Origin: Gloeobacterales cyanobacterium ES-bin-313
Lineage (GTDB): Bacteria > Cyanobacteriota > Cyanobacteriia > Gloeobacterales > Gloeobacteraceae
Length of the DNA: 64,000 bases
Direction: 5' to 3'
Assembly (NCBI GenBank): GCA_014379585.1
Contig: JACMLN010000109.1
Location: forward strand, 1 to 64,000
The position numbers were made by a program, and so were the translations under genes. This document shows, piece by piece, positions 54,209 through 63,143 of the stretch. Position 1 is the first letter of the stretch, and each line of letters begins with the position of its first letter. A model generated the notes under the pieces. It made no database searches. It was not told where the DNA came from and saw only the letters and a program-made list of their open reading frames with translations.

Positions 54209-56902
54209 TCAACCCAAACGCGTCAGTTGTTCTTTCAAGAGAGTGGTCTGGGTATCGATCTCGCCCAACTTGTCGCGGGTCTCTTTGACCAGTTCCGGAG
54301 GTGCATTTTGGACGTAACTCTCGTTAGAAAGGCGGCCATTCAGCCCAGCTGATTCTTTATCCAACTTTTCAAGAGCCTTTTCGAGCTTGACTTTGAGGGC
54401 TTCAATATCGACGAGGCCACTGAGGGGCAAGAAGACCTGGACAGTTCCAGTCACACCAAAAGCCACCTGGGTAAGGGGAGCGGATTCACTACTGCGCAAT
54501 TCTAATTCCTCCACTTTCGCGAGATAGGAAATATAACTGCGAGTGCGCTCAAGAGCCGCCTGTTCATGAGGATTGGCGGTTTCAAGAATCGCGAGGGCGA
54601 TCTTTTGAAGGGGTGGAATCTGCACAAATTGGCGCAGGTTTCTAATCGTGCGCACCACTTCTTGAATGAGCGAAAAATCGGGTTCTTCAGCAATCGGATT
54701 TTCTGCACCAACTGGGTAGGGTTGGAGAAGAATCGAGGTTTCACTAGTTGGTTGATTGAGTAGTTGCCAAATCTCTTCGGTGATGTGGGGCATCCAGGGA
54801 TGGAGAAGTCGAAGGATACGATCCAATACAAAAGCAAGTACCTGTTGCGCACTGCGGCGGATTTCAGGATTGTCGAGGCGAGGCTTGGCAAGCTCCACGT
54901 ACCAGTCGCAGAAGTCGTCCCAGATAAATTCGTAGATCGCCTTTGCCCCTTCACCGAGGGCGTAGCGATCCAGCAGGCTATTCAAGTTTTTCGAGGTGGA
55001 ATCCAACCGTGAAAGAATCCAACGATCTGCCAGTTCCAATTTTTCGGGTTCTGGTGTCCCCAACTGTTCGGGCGTGAGGTCGTCGAGGTTCATCAATACG
55101 AAGCGACTGGCATTCCAGATCTTGTTGGCAAAGCGCTTACTCGCATCGACAGCGCGGGATTCTTTTTTCTTTTTGTCCCAGTCGAGGCGCACATCTTGGC
55201 CTGCTCCCGTCACTTCGCGCACCAGGGTATAGCGCAACGCATCGGTGCCGTAAATATCCATCAGTTCGATGGGGTCGATGCCATTGCCCTTGCTCTTGGA
55301 CATCTTCTGACCCTTATCGTCCCGCACGATGCCATTGATGTAGACCGTTTTGAACGGAATTTCACCCGTGAACGCTTTGGCCATCATCGACATCCGAGCA
55401 ACCCAGAAGAAGATAATGTCGAAGCCCGTGGACATCAACGCATTCGGGAAAAAGGTCTGGAAATCAGCAGTTTCTTCCGGCCAACCCAGAGTCGAAAACG
55501 GCCAGAGAGCAGAACTGAACCAAGTATCTAAAACATCGTCTTCGCGGCGCAATTTCACCCCTTCCCCATAGAGCACAATGGCTTGGGCGTAGGCTTCTGC
55601 TTCGTTATGGGCAACGATGGGGGCGGCTTCTTGATCGATCACATACCAAGCTGGAATCTGATGACCCCACCAAAGTTGGCGGGAAATGCACCAAGGACGA
55701 ATCCGCACAAGCCAATCGCGATAGACATTTCCCCACCGCTCCGGGACAAACACAGGGCTATGATCTTCATCGAAATCCTTGAGACAACGTTCAGCCATCG
55801 GTCGCACATCGAGAAACCACTGATCTGAGAGGTAGGGTTCCACGGGCACCCCACCGCGTTCGGAGTAGGGCACGTTGTGTTTGTAGTCTTCTTTTTTAAG
55901 CAACCAGCCTTCCGCTTCTGCCTGCTTTTCGATAGCGGGGCGTACTCCTTTGAGGCGATCGAGTCCAGCGTAAGGCCCAGCATTTTCGTTGTAGGTGCCA
56001 TCCGGGTTGAGCAAATTGATCATTGGCAAGTTGTGACGTTGACCCATGTCAAAGTCATTTTGGTCGTGGGCAGGCGTAACTTTCACAGCGCCACTGCCGA
56101 AGTCCATTTCCACCGCTTCGTCGCCAATAATCGGAATCTCGCGATCCACAATCGGCAGACGCACCTTTTTGCCGATCAAATGTTGATATCGAGGATCTTT
56201 GGGGTGAACTGCCACCGCCGTATCGCCAAGCATCGTCTCTGGTCGGGTCGTTGCCACGACCAAGGTTTCCTCCGAACCGACCACAGGATAGGCGAAGTGC
56301 CACAGGAATCCTTTAACTTCTTTCTCATCGACTTCGAGATCTGAAACCGCTGTCTGAGAAGCTGTACACCAGTTGACCAAATACTTTCCGCGATAAATCA
56401 AACCCTTGCTGTGGAGATCGACGAAAACTTTCACTACGGCTTGATTGCGTTGGGCATCGAGGGTAAAGGCTTCTCGGCTCCAGTCCAAAGAAAGTCCAAG
56501 GCGGCGGAGTTGCCCTGTGATTTGCCCCCGCGACTTTTCTTTCCAGGCCCAAGCCCGTTCCATAAAAGCGGGGCGACCCAACTTGAAGCGATCCGTGCCC
56601 TCTTCTTTAAATTGCTTGTCCAGTACGGTATGCACGGCGATGCTGGCGTGATCCGTTCCTGGCAACCAAAGCGTCTTGAAACCTTTCATTTTGCGGTAGC
56701 GCATCACCACATCGGGCAGCGTAAAACAGAGGCCATGACCCATGTGCAACGAGCCTGTGACGTTGGGAGGCGGGAGCACCATGCTGAATGGTTCCCCCGG
56801 ATCGTTGGTCTTGGGAGTATAAAATCCTTTGTCTTCCCAGTACCGTTGCCAGCGCGGTTCGGCTTCAAAGGGACTGTATTCTTTCGGTAAGGTGCGGGTC
56901 AT
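54209..56902 (-). CDS. valS: Valyl-tRNA synthetase
   Basis: The 897-residue class I enzyme has the HIGH-type motif PPPNVTGSLHMGHG, a CP1 editing domain (TTRPETMLGDTAVAVHP), the KMSKS motif in DKGQKMSKSKGNGIDP, and the C-terminal coiled coil with KALEKLDKESAGLNGRL. It charges tRNA-Val and clears mischarged threonine. ATG 56902 (MTRTLPKEYSPFEAE) is the family start, seven codons inside the longest frame. Confidence 0.96.
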   Translation of the reverse strand: MTRTLPKEYSPFEAEPRWQRYWEDKGFYTPKTNDPGEPFSMVLPPPNVTGSLHMGHGLCFTLPDVVMRYRKMKGFKTLWLPGTDHASIAVHTVLDKQFKEEGTDRFKLGRPAFMERAWAWKEKSRGQITGQLRRLGLSLDWSREAFTLDAQRNQAVVKVFVDLHSKGLIYRGKYLVNWCTASQTAVSDLEVDEKEVKGFLWHFAYPVVGSEETLVVATTRPETMLGDTAVAVHPKDPRYQHLIGKKVRLPIVDREIPIIGDEAVEMDFGSGAVKVTPAHDQNDFDMGQRHNLPMINLLNPDGTYNENAGPYAGLDRLKGVRPAIEKQAEAEGWLLKKEDYKHNVPYSERGGVPVEPYLSDQWFLDVRPMAERCLKDFDEDHSPVFVPERWGNVYRDWLVRIRPWCISRQLWWGHQIPAWYVIDQEAAPIVAHNEAEAYAQAIVLYGEGVKLRREDDVLDTWFSSALWPFSTLGWPEETADFQTFFPNALMSTGFDIIFFWVARMSMMAKAFTGEIPFKTVYINGIVRDDKGQKMSKSKGNGIDPIELMDIYGTDALRYTLVREVTGAGQDVRLDWDKKKKESRAVDASKRFANKIWNASRFVLMNLDDLTPEQLGTPEPEKLELADRWILSRLDSTSKNLNSLLDRYALGEGAKAIYEFIWDDFCDWYVELAKPRLDNPEIRRSAQQVLAFVLDRILRLLHPWMPHITEEIWQLLNQPTSETSILLQPYPVGAENPIAEEPDFSLIQEVVRTIRNLRQFVQIPPLQKIALAILETANPHEQAALERTRSYISYLAKVEELELRSSESAPLTQVAFGVTGTVQVFLPLSGLVDIEALKVKLEKALEKLDKESAGLNGRLSNESYVQNAPPELVKETRDKLGEIDTQTTLLKEQLTRLG

Positions 56903-57036
56903 AGGCTTGCACACGGACAGCAAATTCTAGGATATCCCTTTGCCTGACCTAGCTGTGGAAGTGTTCTTGTCGTTCCGAAGTCGCACATGATTCCCGTTAT
57001 GGGGTACGGACTGCAATAAGGGCAGGGCGTTTCTAC

Positions 57037-57052
57037 TGTCCGGCGCCGGACA
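57037..57052. promoter_or_regulatory. 16-bp perfect palindrome upstream of the VirB-like operon
   Basis: TGTCCGGCGCCGGACA is a perfect palindrome 86 bp before the operon's first start codon. It stands alone in a 180-bp intergenic region and could be an operator for the operon. Confidence 0.45.
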
Positions 57053-57125
57053 TCTAAGCTCAGATCATGATTGCCACTTGTGGGATTAAACCATGTTCCG
57101 CTATATTGAACTCACTTCACCCAGC

Positions 57126-57133
57126 AGGAGGAG
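57126..57133 (+). promoter_or_regulatory. Ribosome binding site fixing the start of the operon's first gene
   Basis: AGGAGGAG lies 4 bp before ATG 57138, inside the longest open frame, which begins at 57093. It favours the 381-residue product. Confidence 0.7.
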
Positions 57134-57137
57134 TGAG

Positions 57138-58283
57138 ATGGAACGCGATCGATTTCAAGAAGCGGATCCTGCGGAGCGTTTGGCGCTTGGCCAATCTCTC
57201 TTAGAGATCCGCGATCAGCGACGCTATATCGAGCTAGGCTTTACGCGCTTTGAAGCATTTTTGGATTCGAAGGCTTGCCCTGTCGGTCATACCGTCGCTC
57301 GCTACGCAATCAAGTTAGCAGAACGCAAGGATCTGCACCCCCACTTGGATTTGGGGATTGCCCGTATCACTGAACTGATGCGATTGCCCCAAAAAGCAAC
57401 GCAACAATTACTGCAAGAGGGCACGCCAAAAGGTCCAATTTCCGCTTTATCCGTGCGGGTTCTGCGCCGTTATGTCTTGGGCTTAATGGGTGAGCAGCCC
57501 GTTTGCGCTCCAGTCCGTCCAGAACAGATCGATCAGCTCATTGAAAGTTGGGCTTCCCCTCTGCGCGAACAACTTCTTAACCGCCTGCTTAAAAAGCAAT
57601 TCGGTCAAGATCTAGCCAAATTGAGGAGTTTGCTCAGAAAAGATCAATCCCATGAATTGGTCTCCTTCTTTCCTGAGACGCGCCGCAGTCTGCCCCAACG
57701 TTGGGTCGCCCTCACAGCCCATCTTGAACGCCTAGAACAACTGCTAGGCGGCAATCCCAAAGCCGTATCCCCCTTTATTCGCCAATTGCGTTTGCCCCTC
57801 GAAAACTGGGAGCGCGCCGTTTTCTATCTCGATCTGTGTCGCCGCGATCCGATCCGTCAGAGTGATTTTCATCGCCATCGCTCTGCCTGTACAGCCGTCG
57901 AGCTGATCATGCGGGGCAAAGATGGGCAGTTCAACACCGATCAGGCATTTTTACAGGCGCAGCTTGCCCAAGGGCAGCCATCGAAGCAGCCACCCCGGCT
58001 CAAACCCTTCTGGCGCAGGCTTTTTGAGGAGGTCAATCCACCTCCTGAGTACCGGAGCTTTCTGGGTCAACTCGATACTGAAGTGATCGGTGAGCAGTGG
58101 CAGATCCGCTGTGTCGATAACTATCAAGCTGACTACTTGCGCCAATGCCTGCGCAACCGCAAGACAGCACTTTTTTGGCAGATTGCGGCTGACGAACTCG
58201 GAAGTACCCACATCCGCATGCACTGGTCAGAAAGTGGCAAACCGCAAACCCTCGTATTCTCCCTCCAACGCCAAGTGGCTTAA
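57138..58283 (+). CDS. Unrecognised protein, putative DNA-binding, heading the VirB-like operon
   Basis: The 381-residue soluble protein begins with a helical region (LALGQSLLEIRDQRRYIELGFTRFEAFLDSK) that resembles the N-termini of phage and plasmid proteins, such as DUF3102-like or ParB-associated ones. The last 75 residues (WRRLFEEVNPPPEYRSFL ... QADYLRQCLRNRKTALFW) recall the N-terminal domain of DnaA. Both links are weak inferences. It lies 21 bp before the pilin-like gene, so it may regulate or replicate the unit. Confidence 0.55.
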   Translation: MERDRFQEADPAERLALGQSLLEIRDQRRYIELGFTRFEAFLDSKACPVGHTVARYAIKLAERKDLHPHLDLGIARITELMRLPQKATQQLLQEGTPKGPISALSVRVLRRYVLGLMGEQPVCAPVRPEQIDQLIESWASPLREQLLNRLLKKQFGQDLAKLRSLLRKDQSHELVSFFPETRRSLPQRWVALTAHLERLEQLLGGNPKAVSPFIRQLRLPLENWERAVFYLDLCRRDPIRQSDFHRHRSACTAVELIMRGKDGQFNTDQAFLQAQLAQGQPSKQPPRLKPFWRRLFEEVNPPPEYRSFLGQLDTEVIGEQWQIRCVDNYQADYLRQCLRNRKTALFWQIAADELGSTHIRMHWSESGKPQTLVFSLQRQVA

Positions 58284-58304
58284 ACCCCTATTGAGGAAAG
58301 TTTC

Positions 58305-58661
58305 ATGAAAAAATTCTCCCGTTCGTTGCTGCGAACCAGTGCCCTTGCACTCCTACCCATCGTCGATAACTTCGCCCATCCCCACGCAGCTCATGCAGTC
58401 TTCTTCGAAAATGCCCGTGTTTGGCTCGATGCGACTTTTACGGCCACAGGAAATGCAGGTGCTGCCCTCGGTGTCGATATGACCATTAATGTTCTACGAG
58501 CAGTGCTCTTGATCTGGGTTGCCCTCGGTATTGTGCGCACGATTCAAGCTGCTAGAAACGATGAAGATTGGCAGACTACCGCCCGCGTCCCGATCCTGGC
58601 AACGATTTCGATTGTCGTCGGCGATATTATTACGGGTCTCATTATTCCTCCACCGGCCTAA
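58305..58661 (+). CDS. VirB2/TrbC-like pilin candidate
   Basis: The 118-residue protein has a signal-like start (RSLLRTSALALLPIVDN ... AHA), then two hydrophobic helices (about residues 62-82 and 93-113) joined by a short charged loop (RNDEDWQT). This size and layout fit VirB2-type major pilins. There is no diagnostic motif; the call rests on layout and on the VirB3- and VirB4-like genes that follow. Confidence 0.55.
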   Translation: MKKFSRSLLRTSALALLPIVDNFAHPHAAHAVFFENARVWLDATFTATGNAGAALGVDMTINVLRAVLLIWVALGIVRTIQAARNDEDWQTTARVPILATISIVVGDIITGLIIPPPA

Positions 58662-58717
58662 TACCAGATCGTTGCAAAAATGCATGATTTCATCGGTGTT
58701 TGCATTGCCTGAGGGAT

Positions 58718-58737
58718 GGGTGCAGAATGCTGCGCCC
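58718..58737. repeat. 20-bp palindrome, copy P3 (two changes)
   Basis: It matches P1 in reverse orientation except for two positions, which break the perfect symmetry. The flank CTACAT matches the P2 flank. It lies 56 bp after the pilin-like gene and 49 bp before the VirB3-like gene, so it sits inside the operon. Confidence 0.65.
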
Positions 58738-58786
58738 CTACATATCCCCTGGCCCGATTATTGTTCAGGCGAAATGGTGTAAATTC

Positions 58787-59056
58787 ATGCGCAAACTCAA
58801 CCGCAGACTGGGCCAGAAGGCCGACTTTCTCAATTTGATTCCTGGTGACTTGGTGCTGCCTTGGCTGGTGCTCGCTCTGGGAAGTTACGGCATTCTCAAT
58901 GGCATCTTTGGGGTCAACTGGATCTGGACGGCCATGATCGTGCTCTGGGAATGTCTTGTCTGGTTACTGCTTGCCGGCAAAACCCCCCACCGATTTTTTG
59001 GTCAAATGGTCACTCCCCCCAAACTTGCCCGTTCGCGCCTGAGGCAATCAGGATGA
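58787..59056 (+). CDS. VirB3/TrbD-like small membrane protein
   Basis: The 89-residue protein has hydrophobic stretches around residues 22-66 (two close helices) and a basic tail. VirB3 proteins are about 100 residues with one or two helices and sit next to VirB4. Here the TGA stop and the ATG of the VirB4-like gene share ATGA. This is a fit by size, topology and position. Confidence 0.6.
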   Translation: MRKLNRRLGQKADFLNLIPGDLVLPWLVLALGSYGILNGIFGVNWIWTAMIVLWECLVWLLLAGKTPHRFFGQMVTPPKLARSRLRQSG

Positions 59057-61737
59057 AACGCGAGGGATTTACTCCTGTCGAAAAACTGGTGGATCTGGTC
59101 GCCCTCGGCCAGATTGAGCATTCCGAATTGACCTGTGGGTTTTATATTCTCCAGCGCAAACGTACCTACCGTTGTGTCTTCGGTTTTAAAACCCCAGGTA
59201 TTCACGCCCACCAATCTCCCCAAAGCTTTGCCCAGGCATGGGAGGGGTTGGTCACGCTTGGTCGCGAACTGCCAGCGGGGGGACGATTGCAAGTACGATT
59301 ATCGAGCTTTCGAGAAGATCAAAGCCGCATTGCTGAACTCCAAAAATTGAGAGCGAACACCTTGAGTCAACCCCTGGACTGGTTGATGGCAGGGGAACAG
59401 GAGCGTACAGCGGAACTAGCTGCCGATGGGCGGCGGCGGCAGATTGCCGTAAATCTGTTTGCTTCTTGGTCAGAATGGTCGGCTCAGACCGAGGCTCGCG
59501 ACTGGATCGACCGAGTTGCTTTGAGCGCTCATGACCTGTGGTTGAACTATCTGGGCGAAGTCGAAGCCGATCAAAAAGCCCAGATCCTGCGCCTGACCCA
59601 GCAGGCTTTTATCCACTGCCGCCAATGGCTCAATATGCTCAATCTCGGTGCAAGGCTTGATGTCCAAGCGATGCACAGCGAAGAGCTGATGGCCTGGACC
59701 TGGAAGCAGTTCAACGATACGCCTTCACCACCGATTCCCAAGCAGTTTCGCTGGGATGGTCATGCTCTCCTCGTCAAATCCCATGGAGAGCTGGCCTTTG
59801 GCAGTGCCCTATTTGAAACTCCGCCTCAACTGAGTGCCGAGCAGATTGCGCTACGGGCAAGTGACGGCAGTATCCGCCATGGTGCAGTCATGGTGTGGGA
59901 CGAAAAACCAGCCGGGTTCATCGATGCCAGCCAACAACTGCGTTACCTCTGGCAACTGATTGCCCGCCCAGAAGTCCAAGACACGGAGATCGTCGTTGAA
60001 CTTTCGACCTTGAATGAACAGACCAGTCGCGACAATGCCATGCGTCTTCAGCGTCAGGCGACTTCTGGCCTCAAACTCAGCCAGAACCAAGGCAAACTGA
60101 TCGACGTTGCCCAGCAGATGAAACTCGAAGAAGCAGCAGAACTCGAAAAAGCGTTTATCCAGGGATCTCGTCCTCTCTATATCGCTGTCGCTGTCCTGAT
60201 TTGGCGCTCAGAGGCCCAACTGCTTCCCGATAGTTGCCGATTCATCAGTAGTTTCTTTCATCGGCCAGCCCGATTGGTGCGCGAAGTCTCCTACGCCTGG
60301 AAAATTTATCTGCAAAGTCTACCTTTTACCTGGGATGCCCTTTTGGTCAGTCCCTTCGACCGCCGCATGGAATTACTCGATGAGGAAGCACCAGGATTTT
60401 TGCCGTTGGTCTGTGTCCATGGCAGTGATCGCAGTGGGATCGAACTGATCAGCGAAGAAGGACTCAATCCGATTTGGCTCGATCTGTACGAACGCCACCG
60501 CAACTTGGCTTTGTTTGGCACAACCCGCTCAGGAAAGTCAGTGATCTTAGAAGTCTTGATCCGCCATGCTTTGGCGCGGGGGATTCCTGTCGTGGCGATG
60601 GATTTTCCGAAGCCCGATGGCAGTTCCACTTTCTCTGATTACACCGCTTTTCTCGGTGGTGCGTACTTCGATGTCGGACGACATTGCCTCAACCTCTTTG
60701 AATTGCCTGACCTGCGTCTCCTCAAAGCCGACTTGCGCAAAGAACGCCTCGAAGAATTCCAAGAATTTTTGGTCTCCGCCTTAATGGTGATGGTGCTTGG
60801 CCGTACCCTCAGTGAGCCGCTCCTCTCCCAAACCGTCCGCTCCATGCTGCAACTGGCCATCAATGCCTTTTTTGCCGATCCCTCGATTCGTGAACGCTAC
60901 GACCAAGCCATTCGCGGCGAAGTTGGCTCAGAAGCCTGGAAACACTATCCTTCTTTGCCAGATCTCATGCCTTTTATCGACCTCGAACGCTTGGGATTTG
61001 ACAGTGGGCACATGGGAGCAGCCTTCGAACAGATTCGCCTGCGTCTCAACTATTGGCTCGGTTCCCGTGTTGGCCAGAAACTCAGTCAACCCTCAACGAT
61101 CCGCGCCGACTCTCCCCTGCTTGTCTTTGCCCTGCGCAACGTCAGTAACGAGGAAGACATGGCAGTTTTAGCCCTTGCCAACTACGCCGCTGCTCTGCGC
61201 CGCGCCTTGGCAACGCCTGCTTCTCTGTTTATCCTCGACGAAGCACCGATCCTCTTCGAATGTGCGGAGATCGCAAACTTAGTGGCGCGGCTCTGTGCGA
61301 ACGGAGCAAAAGCAGGGGTGCGGGTGATCCTCTCCGCCCAAGATCCGGACACCATCGAAAAAGCCCCCAACAGTTCCAAAATCTTCCAAAATTTAGGGAC
61401 GCGATTGATTGGGCGCATCGAAGCGAATGCCATTCCATCTTTTGTCCGCATCTTCGGCTACAGCGAAGCCAGCCTTGCTCGTAACGCCAGTGCCCAATTC
61501 TTTCCAAATAGCCGCGAAATCTTTTCGAGGTGGCTGATCGACGATGGCGGAAGACTGATTCCCGCCCGCTACTACCCGTGCTATCGCGCCCTCGCCGTCG
61601 TCGCCAACAACCCCGACGAACAAAAATCCCGCTCCGCTTTTCTCGCTGCCATTGGCACCCGCTACCCAGATACCCTGACTGCCCTTGCTGATTTCAGTCG
61701 TCACTATGTGCAGATGCTCAGAAGCAAGGGAATATAA
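59053..61737 (+). CDS. VirB4/TraC-family type IV secretion ATPase
   Basis: The 894-residue protein has a Walker A motif FGTTRSGKS (about residues 488-496, Lys495), a Walker B motif SLFILDEAPILFE (Asp729-Glu730), and ILSAQDPDTIEKAPNSSKIFQNLGTRLIGR, as in VirB4/TraC ATPases. VirB4 powers pilus assembly and substrate transfer at the inner membrane. It begins inside the VirB3-like stop codon. No VirB6, B8-B11 or D4 gene lies in the window. Confidence 0.82.
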   Translation: MKREGFTPVEKLVDLVALGQIEHSELTCGFYILQRKRTYRCVFGFKTPGIHAHQSPQSFAQAWEGLVTLGRELPAGGRLQVRLSSFREDQSRIAELQKLRANTLSQPLDWLMAGEQERTAELAADGRRRQIAVNLFASWSEWSAQTEARDWIDRVALSAHDLWLNYLGEVEADQKAQILRLTQQAFIHCRQWLNMLNLGARLDVQAMHSEELMAWTWKQFNDTPSPPIPKQFRWDGHALLVKSHGELAFGSALFETPPQLSAEQIALRASDGSIRHGAVMVWDEKPAGFIDASQQLRYLWQLIARPEVQDTEIVVELSTLNEQTSRDNAMRLQRQATSGLKLSQNQGKLIDVAQQMKLEEAAELEKAFIQGSRPLYIAVAVLIWRSEAQLLPDSCRFISSFFHRPARLVREVSYAWKIYLQSLPFTWDALLVSPFDRRMELLDEEAPGFLPLVCVHGSDRSGIELISEEGLNPIWLDLYERHRNLALFGTTRSGKSVILEVLIRHALARGIPVVAMDFPKPDGSSTFSDYTAFLGGAYFDVGRHCLNLFELPDLRLLKADLRKERLEEFQEFLVSALMVMVLGRTLSEPLLSQTVRSMLQLAINAFFADPSIRERYDQAIRGEVGSEAWKHYPSLPDLMPFIDLERLGFDSGHMGAAFEQIRLRLNYWLGSRVGQKLSQPSTIRADSPLLVFALRNVSNEEDMAVLALANYAAALRRALATPASLFILDEAPILFECAEIANLVARLCANGAKAGVRVILSAQDPDTIEKAPNSSKIFQNLGTRLIGRIEANAIPSFVRIFGYSEASLARNASAQFFPNSREIFSRWLIDDGGRLIPARYYPCYRALAVVANNPDEQKSRSAFLAAIGTRYPDTLTALADFSRHYVQMLRSKGI

Positions 61738-61765
61738 TTTTGCAGCTTATTCTTGTCCAAGCGCA

Positions 61766-62275
61766 ATGAAAAAATACATTTCTCTTGTCTTTCTACTCAC
61801 TGTCTTTTCAGAACCAGCCCATGCTCTGCCTGCAAAAAATTTATGCTCCACCCAAGAACAGGTGATCTTGAGTTGCACACTCAAGAAAAATGAGCGGATT
61901 CTTTCCTTGTGTGCGTCCAAGAATCTCGGTGCGAACAAGGGCTACCTCCAGTATCGTTTTGGGAAACGGAGCCGCATCGAGTTAGTGTTTCCCGTCAATC
62001 GCCAAGGTTCACAAAAAGCGTTTACCTACGCACGCTACACCCGACCACTGGTGACTTACTTGCAGGTACGTTTTGTCAATCTCGACTACACCTATGAAAT
62101 CTTTTCTCAAAGCGATGCCACTCCAGGAGCCAGTTTTGCTTCCACAGGAATAGCCGTTACCCCTGACAGCAAAAAAGCCACACGCACCTTCGAATGTACG
62201 CAACCCATTTCGGGCAGCCTCTCAAAATTAGAAGGGACCGTGCCCCAAGTTGATTTTTTGGACAATGCGCCTTAA
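61766..62275 (+). CDS. Secreted protein of unknown function
   Basis: The 169-residue protein has a signal peptide (ISLVFLLTVFSEPAHA) and a beta-rich mature domain with four cysteines in two pairs (NLCSTQ/LSCTLK and SLCASK/TFECTQP). It follows the VirB4-like gene by 28 bp, so it may be part of the same machinery, or merely co-located. I know no family. Confidence 0.7.
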   Translation: MKKYISLVFLLTVFSEPAHALPAKNLCSTQEQVILSCTLKKNERILSLCASKNLGANKGYLQYRFGKRSRIELVFPVNRQGSQKAFTYARYTRPLVTYLQVRFVNLDYTYEIFSQSDATPGASFASTGIAVTPDSKKATRTFECTQPISGSLSKLEGTVPQVDFLDNAP

Positions 62276-62283
62276 GAGTCTGC

Positions 62284-62541
62284 TTGTACGAACCCCAACC
62301 AGTCCAGATTCGCTTCCTCAAAAAAGTCGCTCCATTTATCCGCGAACAACGTTGGCACCCAACTCAGAGCATCGAAGAACATCCCGATGGCGCTTTAACG
62401 CTGCATATGCGCATTCCAGGATTGGCCGAAGTGATGCGTTGGGTGATGGGCTATGGAGGCGATGCCATTGTTGAGGGCTGCCCAGAGCTAGTCGAGATGA
62501 TTCGTCTTGAAAGTGCGAAGATGGCAAAGAATTACCAGTGA
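62284..62541 (+). pseudogene. WYL-regulator C-terminal (WCX) domain fragment
   Basis: The 85 residues VQIRFLKKVAPFIREQRW ... LAEVMRWVMGYGGDAIVEG ... AKMAKNYQ match the C-terminal extension of WYL transcriptional regulators. The HTH and WYL domains (about 230 residues) are missing. The only start is TTG 62284. WYL regulators often sit in defence loci. This is probably a relic, although it could be expressed. Confidence 0.65.
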
Positions 62542-63143
62542 GCGCCGCCATGGATTTGCTCCTTAAAAAACCGACGATCCAACTGCGGCTTCCCACCGAT
62601 TTACATCTGAGTGACGAACAACTTTTTGAGCTTTGCCAACTCAATCAAGAACTGCGGATTGAGCGCACGGTATTAGGAGAATTATTAATTATGTCCCCAG
62701 CTAGTAGCGACTCTGGTGCTCGTAATGCCAGTTTGACTGGGCAACTCTGGCTCTGGAATCGCACTACAAGCTTAGGCCAAGTCTTCGATTCTTCAGCCGG
62801 TTTTGTCTTCGCAAATGGAGCAATGCGCGCACCAGATGCAGCCTGGATTCGTCGAGAGCGATGGGAAGCCTTGCCTCTTTCTCAACGTCAAAAATTTGCG
62901 CCCATCAGCCCTGATTTCGTCGTTGAACTAAAATCCCCCTCGGACAAACTCGAAGATTTACAGAGCAAAATGCAGGAGTATATCGAAAATGGTGTTCTCC
63001 TAGGCTGGCTTATCGATCCGATGCAGCGACGAGTCTGGATCTACAAACCTGGAATCGAGTCACTTACACTCGAAAATTCCCTCAGCCTCTCAGATCCTCT
63101 ACTCCCAGGATTCGAACTGGAGCTAGAAGAGATCTTTGCTTAG
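62538..63143 (+). CDS. Uma2-family (DUF820) putative nuclease
   Basis: The 201-residue protein has the Uma2 core: ELCQLNQELRIERTVLGELLIMSPAS, RAPDAAWIRRERWEAL, APISPDFVVELKSPSDKLEDLQSKMQEYIENGVLLGWLIDP. It has no coiled-coil tail, unlike the 50.3-kb gene, and is only distantly related to it. It starts with GTG overlapping the preceding stop (GTGA). ATG 62550 is an alternative. Confidence 0.88.
   Translation: MSAAMDLLLKKPTIQLRLPTDLHLSDEQLFELCQLNQELRIERTVLGELLIMSPASSDSGARNASLTGQLWLWNRTTSLGQVFDSSAGFVFANGAMRAPDAAWIRRERWEALPLSQRQKFAPISPDFVVELKSPSDKLEDLQSKMQEYIENGVLLGWLIDPMQRRVWIYKPGIESLTLENSLSLSDPLLPGFELELEEIFA

What the first reader, a model, noticed from the sequence alone, without database searches (positions are those of the whole stretch)
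57093..62275. Compact VirB2-VirB3-VirB4-like operon in a cyanobacterium
A pilin-like protein, a VirB3-like protein and a VirB4 ATPase occur in the order seen in type IV secretion operons, with an ATGA overlap between B3 and B4. They are led by an unknown putative DNA-binding protein and followed by a secreted four-cysteine protein. The rest of the apparatus (B6, B8-B11, D4, relaxase) is not in the window. It may be a minimal or lineage-specific machine, an integrated element, or a relic whose other genes lie elsewhere.
Basis: partly seen in the sequence, partly recalled or inferred. Interest (0 to 1): 0.75.

Follow-up and report, generated by a model that had tools for sequence, protein, structure and literature searches.

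The report
Scattered chromosomal secretion machine in Gloeobacter
The window carries one piece (pilin, VirB3, VirB4 and a leading probable regulator) of a type IV secretion machine related to the one on cyanobacterial conjugative plasmids; in the earliest-branching cyanobacteria its genes sit at three chromosomal places, have no partner relaxase, are kept intact by selection, and two of the three places share the same promoter-operator sequence.

Summary
Confirmed: 58305-61737 encodes VirB2-, VirB3- and VirB4-like proteins with the ATGA overlap. They are orthologues of the start of the operon on cyanobacterial conjugative plasmids (MPF_C type). The same block with its leading HTH-like gene lies in four relatives' genomes (B4 about 70% identical). 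The rest of the machine is not missing. In the window's own genome a VirB5-position/VirB6-like pair lies on contig 14, and a VirB8-position/VirB10/VirD4 cluster on contig 129. Both occur in four relatives, 0.2-3 Mb apart on three chromosomes. All genes are under purifying selection. Four relaxase families are absent from the window's genome.

New here: a composite promoter-operator (TGTCCGGCGCCGGACA, then TCCCAnTTGTGGGAA, then a TANNNT -10 box) precedes both the window locus and the VirB10/VirD4 locus in all six Gloeobacteraceae genomes. A matrix trained on one locus finds the other in 2.4 Mb of scanned DNA. It also finds one extra site in G004, upstream of a secreted M23 wall hydrolase.

Best reading: a domesticated, co-regulated, dispersed MPF_C type IV secretion system, probably for protein (or DNA) export rather than self-transfer. 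Substrate is unknown. The four-cysteine protein is probably not part of it.

The parts
57037..57052 (+). 16-bp perfect palindrome TGTCCGGCGCCGGACA, first half of the composite operator shared with the VirB10/VirD4 locus
   Evidence: only 16/16 match in the window, next best 12/16; same element before the HTH and VirB8-position genes in all six Gloeobacteraceae genomes
57072..57089 (+). second element TGCCACTTGTGGGATTAA (consensus TCCCAnTTGTGGGAATTA), at about the -35 region
   Evidence: 32-40 bp from palindrome start to element start at all 13 sites
57102..57107 (+). -10-like box TATATT
   Evidence: a TANNNT box begins 11-15 bp after the second element at 12 of 12 T4SS-locus sites; control 3% of random positions
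57138..58283 (+). Gloeobacteraceae-specific HTH-like protein, probable regulator of the system (ORF can be read from 57093)
   Evidence: found in 6 of 145 genomes, all Gloeobacteraceae; no Pfam, NCBIfam, PHROG or PDB sequence match; DNA binding inferred, structure model too poor to use
58305..58661 (+). VirB2-like pilin: signal peptide, two hydrophobic segments
   Evidence: orthologous to the gene before virB3-virB4 on MPF_C plasmids; no pilin profile match
58787..59056 (+). VirB3-like membrane protein
   Evidence: orthologous to the MPF_C plasmid gene in this position; no VirB3 profile match
59053..61737 (+). VirB4-family ATPase; Walker A GTTRSGKS at residue 489, Walker B LFILDEAP at residue 725
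61766..62275 (+). secreted 4-Cys protein just downstream; neighbour, probably not a part of the system
   Evidence: no homologue in the four related loci; lower GC

Best explanation
The window locus is the VirB2-B3-B4 module of a complete or nearly complete MPF_C-type type IV secretion system that the Gloeobacteraceae carry on their chromosomes in three separate loci: (1) HTH gene, VirB1-like wall hydrolase (not in this genome), VirB2, VirB3, VirB4; (2) a secreted VirB5-position protein and a VirB6-like protein; (3) VirB8-position protein, VirB10, two envelope proteins (one absent here), VirD4. Loci 1 and 3 are driven by the same composite promoter-operator, probably read by the HTH protein of locus 1. 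VirB4 would power pilus/channel assembly, VirB3, VirB6, VirB8 and VirB10 would form the envelope channel, a wall hydrolase would open the peptidoglycan, and VirD4 would select the substrate. With VirD4 kept and no dedicated relaxase found, the likeliest use is export of protein (possibly DNA) to neighbouring cells or the medium; it descends from, or shares an ancestor with, conjugation machines but is now inherited with the chromosome. Shown: homology, dispersal, conservation, purifying selection, shared promoter element. Inferred: regulator role, assembly of one machine, substrate class.
For: Plasmid orthologues in the same order. Satellite loci in the window's own genome: B6-like on contig 14 (53190-54161), VirB8-position gene, VirB10 (PF03743, 2.3e-9) and VirD4 (PF10412 1.3e-28, PF12696 5.9e-26) on contig 129. 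Same three loci in G001, G003, G004, G005, with gene positions spread over the complete chromosomes. Gene trees of B4, D4, VirB8-position, B6 and the F12 protein each put the Gloeobacteraceae chromosomal copies in one clade (SH-aLRT 100), away from G. morelensis's own plasmid copy where it is included. dN/dS 0.00-0.38 between near relatives, B2/B3/B4/D4 about 0-0.10. Operator cross-prediction: a matrix trained only on HTH-locus sites ranks the VirB8-position-locus sites of G002, G004 and G001 next in 2.42 Mb on both strands, and the reverse training recovers the HTH sites of all genomes; -10 box at 12/12 sites. The only other strong site in about 2 Mb of the G004 chromosome precedes a secreted M23 peptidase, and G007's T4SS operon likewise contains an M23 plus peptidoglycan-binding protein. 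No match to PF01076, PF03432, PF08751 or PF03389 in G000.
Against: No experiment or known substrate. VirB2, VirB3, VirB6 and VirB8 are assigned by position and topology only. The VirB6-like locus has only a TGTCCGG half-site, not the full operator. This genome lacks the VirB1-like gene and the small gene between VirB10 and the next envelope gene. G002's locus 1 is broken inside virB2 and B3/B4 were not found there, so the system can be lost. Some relatives carry relaxases elsewhere. Relaxase families MOBH, MOBC and MOBT were not searched.
Confidence: 0.72

Rival explanations
1. A conjugation machine in disguise: the dispersed genes still transfer DNA, mobilising plasmids or elements that bring their own relaxase.
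For: VirD4 is of the conjugative type. G004 has a full MobA/MobL relaxase at 1.418 Mb, G005 has MOBV fragments, G003 has four PF03432 relaxases.
Against: No hit for four relaxase families in G000 and none above cut-off in G001. The relaxases present differ in family between genomes and do not travel with the T4SS loci. Genes of a self-transferring element are expected together; these lie hundreds of kb to Mb apart.
Confidence: 0.15
2. A DNA-uptake system like Helicobacter pylori ComB, which is also split into a comB2-B3-B4 operon and distant loci and has no relaxase.
For: Same split architecture: the published ComB system has comB2-B3-B4 in one locus, comB6-B10 in another and comB11 elsewhere (PMC13395361).
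Against: ComB lacks VirD4, as expected for uptake (PMC13395361); here VirD4 is kept in the same operon as VirB10 and has dN/dS about 0.1. Type IV pilus genes, which could serve uptake, are reported as conserved in Gloeobacter (PMC4390875).
Confidence: 0.07
3. A decaying relic of an old integrated element.
For: Locus 1 is broken in G002; this genome has lost the VirB1-like gene and one small gene.
Against: dN/dS well below 1 for every gene at all three loci, intact Walker motifs in both ATPases, promoters conserved in six genomes, normal base composition in the window.
Confidence: 0.04
4. Three unrelated single-purpose loci that share only ancestry, not one machine.
For: The VirB6-like locus lacks the full shared operator.
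Against: All three occur together in five of five genomes that have the VirB4; together they supply the components that plasmids carry as one operon; loci 1 and 3 share a promoter-operator.
Confidence: 0.02

Closest known systems
MPF_C type IV secretion systems of cyanobacterial conjugative plasmids (e.g. pMIC7113.01, Tolypothrix sp. PCC 7601 unnamed2; Nostoc PCC 7120 pCC7120alpha alr7206/alr7213)
   Same: VirB2-B3-B4 order, VirB4 homologous over the whole length (44% to pMIC7113.01, 43% to the Tolypothrix plasmid), VirB6-like, VirB8-position, VirB10, envelope proteins and VirD4 all homologous
   Different: Chromosomal, split over three loci, no relaxase, a Gloeobacteraceae-specific leading regulator gene and promoter-operator, separate clade in the VirB4 tree
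Rickettsia rvh T4SS
   Same: Vertically inherited T4SS dispersed over the chromosome (five islets; PMC2653234)
   Different: Different T4SS class (vir-like) with duplicated genes, obligate intracellular hosts; shared operator between loci shown here
Helicobacter pylori ComB
   Same: B2-B3-B4 in one locus, other components elsewhere, no conjugation (PMC13395361)
   Different: ComB lacks VirD4 and imports DNA; here VirD4 is retained
MOB-less T4SSs reported for cyanobacteria by Guglielmini et al. 2011 (PMC3158045)
   Same: T4SS without relaxase in a cyanobacterium, proposed there to be protein secretion
   Different: Gloeobacter is not mentioned in that paper's main text; dispersal and shared regulation not described in the parts read

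Membership tests
MPF_C type IV secretion system | VirB4 ATPase homologous to cyanobacterial plasmid VirB4 | tested here: met
   full-length homologues in 113 plasmid records, up to 44% identity
MPF_C type IV secretion system | VirB2- and VirB3-like genes directly before virB4 | tested here: met
   orthologous to the plasmid genes in the same positions; no match to general VirB2/VirB3 profiles
MPF_C type IV secretion system | VirB6-like, VirB8-position, VirB10 and VirD4 in the same genome | tested here: met
   (contigs 14 and 129 of the window's genome)
MPF_C type IV secretion system | components in one operon | tested here: not met
   three loci far apart on complete chromosomes of relatives; three contigs here
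Conjugative system (plasmid or ICE) | relaxase | tested here: not met
   PF01076, PF03432, PF08751, PF03389 absent from G000; MOBH, MOBC, MOBT not searched
Conjugative system (plasmid or ICE) | type IV coupling protein | tested here: met
Conjugative system (plasmid or ICE) | integrase and att sites bounding the element | not tested
   only about 18 flanking proteins were scanned; none was an integrase, one was transposase-associated; no att search
   TraC/VirB4 best; Pfam alone gave only sub-threshold hits, FtsK slightly ahead of TraC
VirB2 pilin family | assembles into a pilus | not testable with these tools
   signal peptide and two hydrophobic segments only

The most novel reading that the evidence does not exclude
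The earliest-branching cyanobacteria maintain a dedicated, transcriptionally coordinated, chromosomal MPF_C type IV secretion system, vertically inherited at least since the Gloeobacteraceae ancestor, that delivers still unknown substrates to other cells; its regulator and 50-bp composite operator define a regulon through which substrates and accessory wall hydrolases can be found.
Probability: 0.5. Interest if true: 0.75.

Novelty: new variant of a known kind. Interest (0 to 1): 0.6.

Why it matters
It would be a conserved non-conjugative type IV secretion system in thylakoid-less cyanobacteria, a lineage for which none was found in the papers searched. It gives a clear case of a conjugation machine becoming a host function in a third setting besides Rickettsia and Helicobacter. 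The shared operator gives a direct handle: scanning complete Gloeobacter genomes with it, and mutating the HTH gene, should reveal substrates. It already picked out a wall hydrolase of the kind such machines use.

Tried and rejected
PF03135 on the own genome: no match, uninformative because the general Pfam model does not reach MPF_C. Solved-structure sequence searches with the B2, B3, B4, B6, VirB8-position and HTH profiles: nothing useful. Profile comparison of single R388 or F proteins with the B2, B3, B6 and VirB8-position alignments: no signal, alignments too shallow. Structure model of the HTH protein: mean pLDDT 42, discarded. The B4 model is also weak overall (45.6; ATPase core 70-90), so its Foldseek ranking is supportive only; the viral library gave nothing below 0.001. 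First B4 tree used minus-strand loci unreversed and was discarded; one search replaces it. Viral-contig scan: no relatives. HTH gene on plasmids: none. Sigma-70 and terminator scan of the locus: no more sites than shuffles; its strict hexamer rule does not cover this promoter. The rest of the G004 chromosome could not be fetched, so the regulon scan covers about 2.0 of 4.7 Mb plus the T4SS loci.

Full report
What is in the window. The region 57093-62275 holds five ORFs on the + strand between valS (- strand, 54209-56923) and a WCX-domain and a Uma2 gene. The VirB3-like gene ends in ATGA, where the ATPase gene starts (59053). Base composition is that of the window (52-54% against 52%, s.d. 2.75%). 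The leading ORF can be read from 57093, but ATG 57138 has a Shine-Dalgarno, and the upstream 45 bases carry a -10-like box, so 57138 is the likelier start.

Is the ATPase VirB4? Pfam is silent or sub-threshold. NCBIfam gives TraC-F-type 5.8e-14 and VirB4_CagE 1.6e-6 (both far under their curated cut-offs). A profile of the family aligns over 347 columns with F TraC. A weak AlphaFold model finds R388 TrwK/VirB4 and Thermoanaerobacter VirB4 as top structural hits, followed by TrwB; no FtsK or HerA is among the listed matches. Among plasmids the protein has 113 records with homologues, all cyanobacterial as far as listed, up to 44% identity over 99% of its length, many on plasmids typed as conjugative. 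There the two genes upstream are homologous to the window's B2 and B3. So the block is the head of an MPF_C operon. VirB2 and VirB3 themselves match no general profile; they are named by orthology, position and membrane topology.

Conservation. In 145 related genomes VirB4 occurs in 36. In the family (Gloeobacteraceae) four of five relatives have it at about 70% identity, with HTH, B2, B3 and B4 in the same order, two of them on single-contig chromosomes. G003 is Gloeobacter morelensis MG652769 (its contig 2 has the length and match coordinates of plasmid pGMOR1), and G005 has a contig of the same length and locus as the MAG Aphanocapsa lilacina HA4352-LM1. The names G. violaceus (G001), G. 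kilaueensis (G004) and Anthocerotibacter panamensis (G007) are from memory of chromosome sizes and are leads only. In relatives a VirB1-like protein (PG_binding_1 2e-10, sub-threshold muramidase) lies between HTH and B2; the window's genome lacks it. The flanks differ between the window, G004 and the G001/G003/G005 group and include ordinary genes (valS, SMC, a helicase, peptidases).

The missing parts are elsewhere. Profiles from the plasmid operons find in the window's genome a VirB6-like gene on contig 14 with a secreted VirB5-position gene before it, and on contig 129 a cluster: VirB8-position gene, VirB10 (PF03743), an envelope protein, VirD4 (PF10412, PF12696, PF02534). The same two clusters are in G001, G003, G004 and G005. 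On the chromosome of G004 they lie at 4.03, 2.72 and 1.04 Mb; of G001 at 0.66, 0.13 and 2.19 Mb. In G007, of another family, all are nearly contiguous at 1.592-1.612 Mb. Trees of B4, D4, the VirB8-position protein, B6 and the F12 envelope protein each group the Gloeobacteraceae chromosomal copies with full SH-aLRT support; G. morelensis's plasmid carries a separate copy. dN/dS between G001, G003 and G005 is 0.00-0.38 across genes and 0-0.10 for B2, B3, B4 and D4. Both ATPases keep Walker A and B.

No dedicated relaxase. Four relaxase families were searched. None matches in the window's genome; G001 has only sub-cut-off matches; G004 has one MobA/MobL protein, G005 MOBV fragments, G003 four PF03432 proteins and G007 one TrwC-type beside a second VirD4 at 3.97 Mb. 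None recurs with the T4SS.

A shared promoter-operator. Comparing upstream regions of the three loci in three lineages showed shared 8-mers (6, against a mean of 0.1 and maximum of 2 in 20 Markov shuffles). They belong to a composite element: a 16-bp palindrome (perfect in the window, 57037-57052), 16-24 bp, then TCCCAnTTGTGGGAATTA (57072-57089). It precedes HTH and the VirB8-position gene in all six Gloeobacteraceae genomes. Trained only on HTH-locus sites, a matrix scanned over 2.42 Mb on both strands ranks the VirB8-position-locus sites of G002, G004 and G001 directly after its training sites, then one new site, L187:15428 = G004:C1:1269128; the sites of G003, G005 and G000 score lower, within the range of overlapping offset hits. 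Trained only on VirB8-position-locus sites, it recovers all six HTH sites above the new site. A TANNNT box starts 11-15 bp after the element at 12 of 12 sites (control 3%; the genomes are related, so these are about four independent lineages). The new site lies before a secreted M23 peptidase (PF01551 2.5e-27). G007's operon also holds an M23 plus peptidoglycan-binding protein, so this operator-only prediction landed on a plausible part. The VirB6-like locus has only a half-site. The HTH protein is found only in the six genomes that have the element; that it binds the element is inference.

How it probably works. HTH and operator set expression; VirB4 and the B3/B6-like/B8/B10 proteins build the channel, a wall hydrolase makes room, VirB2 forms a pilus or stalk, VirD4 feeds the substrate. 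Retention of VirD4 argues for export and against a ComB-like uptake device (PMC13395361); dispersal and missing relaxase argue against self-transfer. Rickettsia rvh is the precedent for a vertically inherited scattered T4SS (PMC2653234). Guglielmini et al. already noted MOB-less T4SSs in cyanobacteria and proposed protein secretion (PMC3158045). No paper found describes one in Gloeobacter, but subscription papers are not held.

Limits. Only Gloeobacteraceae genomes held here were compared; G002 shows that the locus can be broken. Substrate, assembly and regulation are untested. The regulon scan covered about 43% of one chromosome plus the T4SS loci.

Noticed in passing
L187:15544-16137 (G004:C1 about 1.2692 Mb): Secreted M23 peptidase preceded by the T4SS-type composite operator; candidate accessory wall hydrolase of the system.
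   Followed up: partly
L035:7927-19405 and L080:1604-11749 (G007:C1 1.592-1.612 Mb): Near-contiguous chromosomal MPF_C operon in another Gloeobacterales family, with WG-repeat and WD40 genes between the VirB6-like gene and a 933-aa M23 plus peptidoglycan-binding protein, then VirD4, VirB8-position gene and VirB10; the only relaxase found in that genome is at 3.97 Mb.
   Followed up: partly
L113:11461-12365 (G002:C276): virB2 is interrupted after about 88 codons; transposase-like coding sequence lies near the contig end. B3 and B4 were not found in that assembly.
   Followed up: partly
L042:9691-12432 and L043:9080-11821 (G. morelensis chromosome and plasmid contig): A second, distant VirB4 type (about 24% identical to the window's) present in two near-identical copies, one chromosomal and one on the plasmid.
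   Followed up: no
window:62284-62541: Stand-alone 85-aa WCX-domain protein (Pfam 1.8e-15), overlapping the start of a Uma2-family gene (62538-63143); a longer WCX protein lies at L040:18255-19766 on the same contig.
   Followed up: no
G004:C1:1418115-1418663: MobA/MobL relaxase (PF03389, 3.3e-52) on a Gloeobacter chromosome, away from the T4SS loci.
   Followed up: no
L031:14357-14737 and its relatives: A 126-131-aa conserved protein of unknown family between HTH and the VirB1-like gene in Gloeobacter, absent from the window locus.
   Followed up: no
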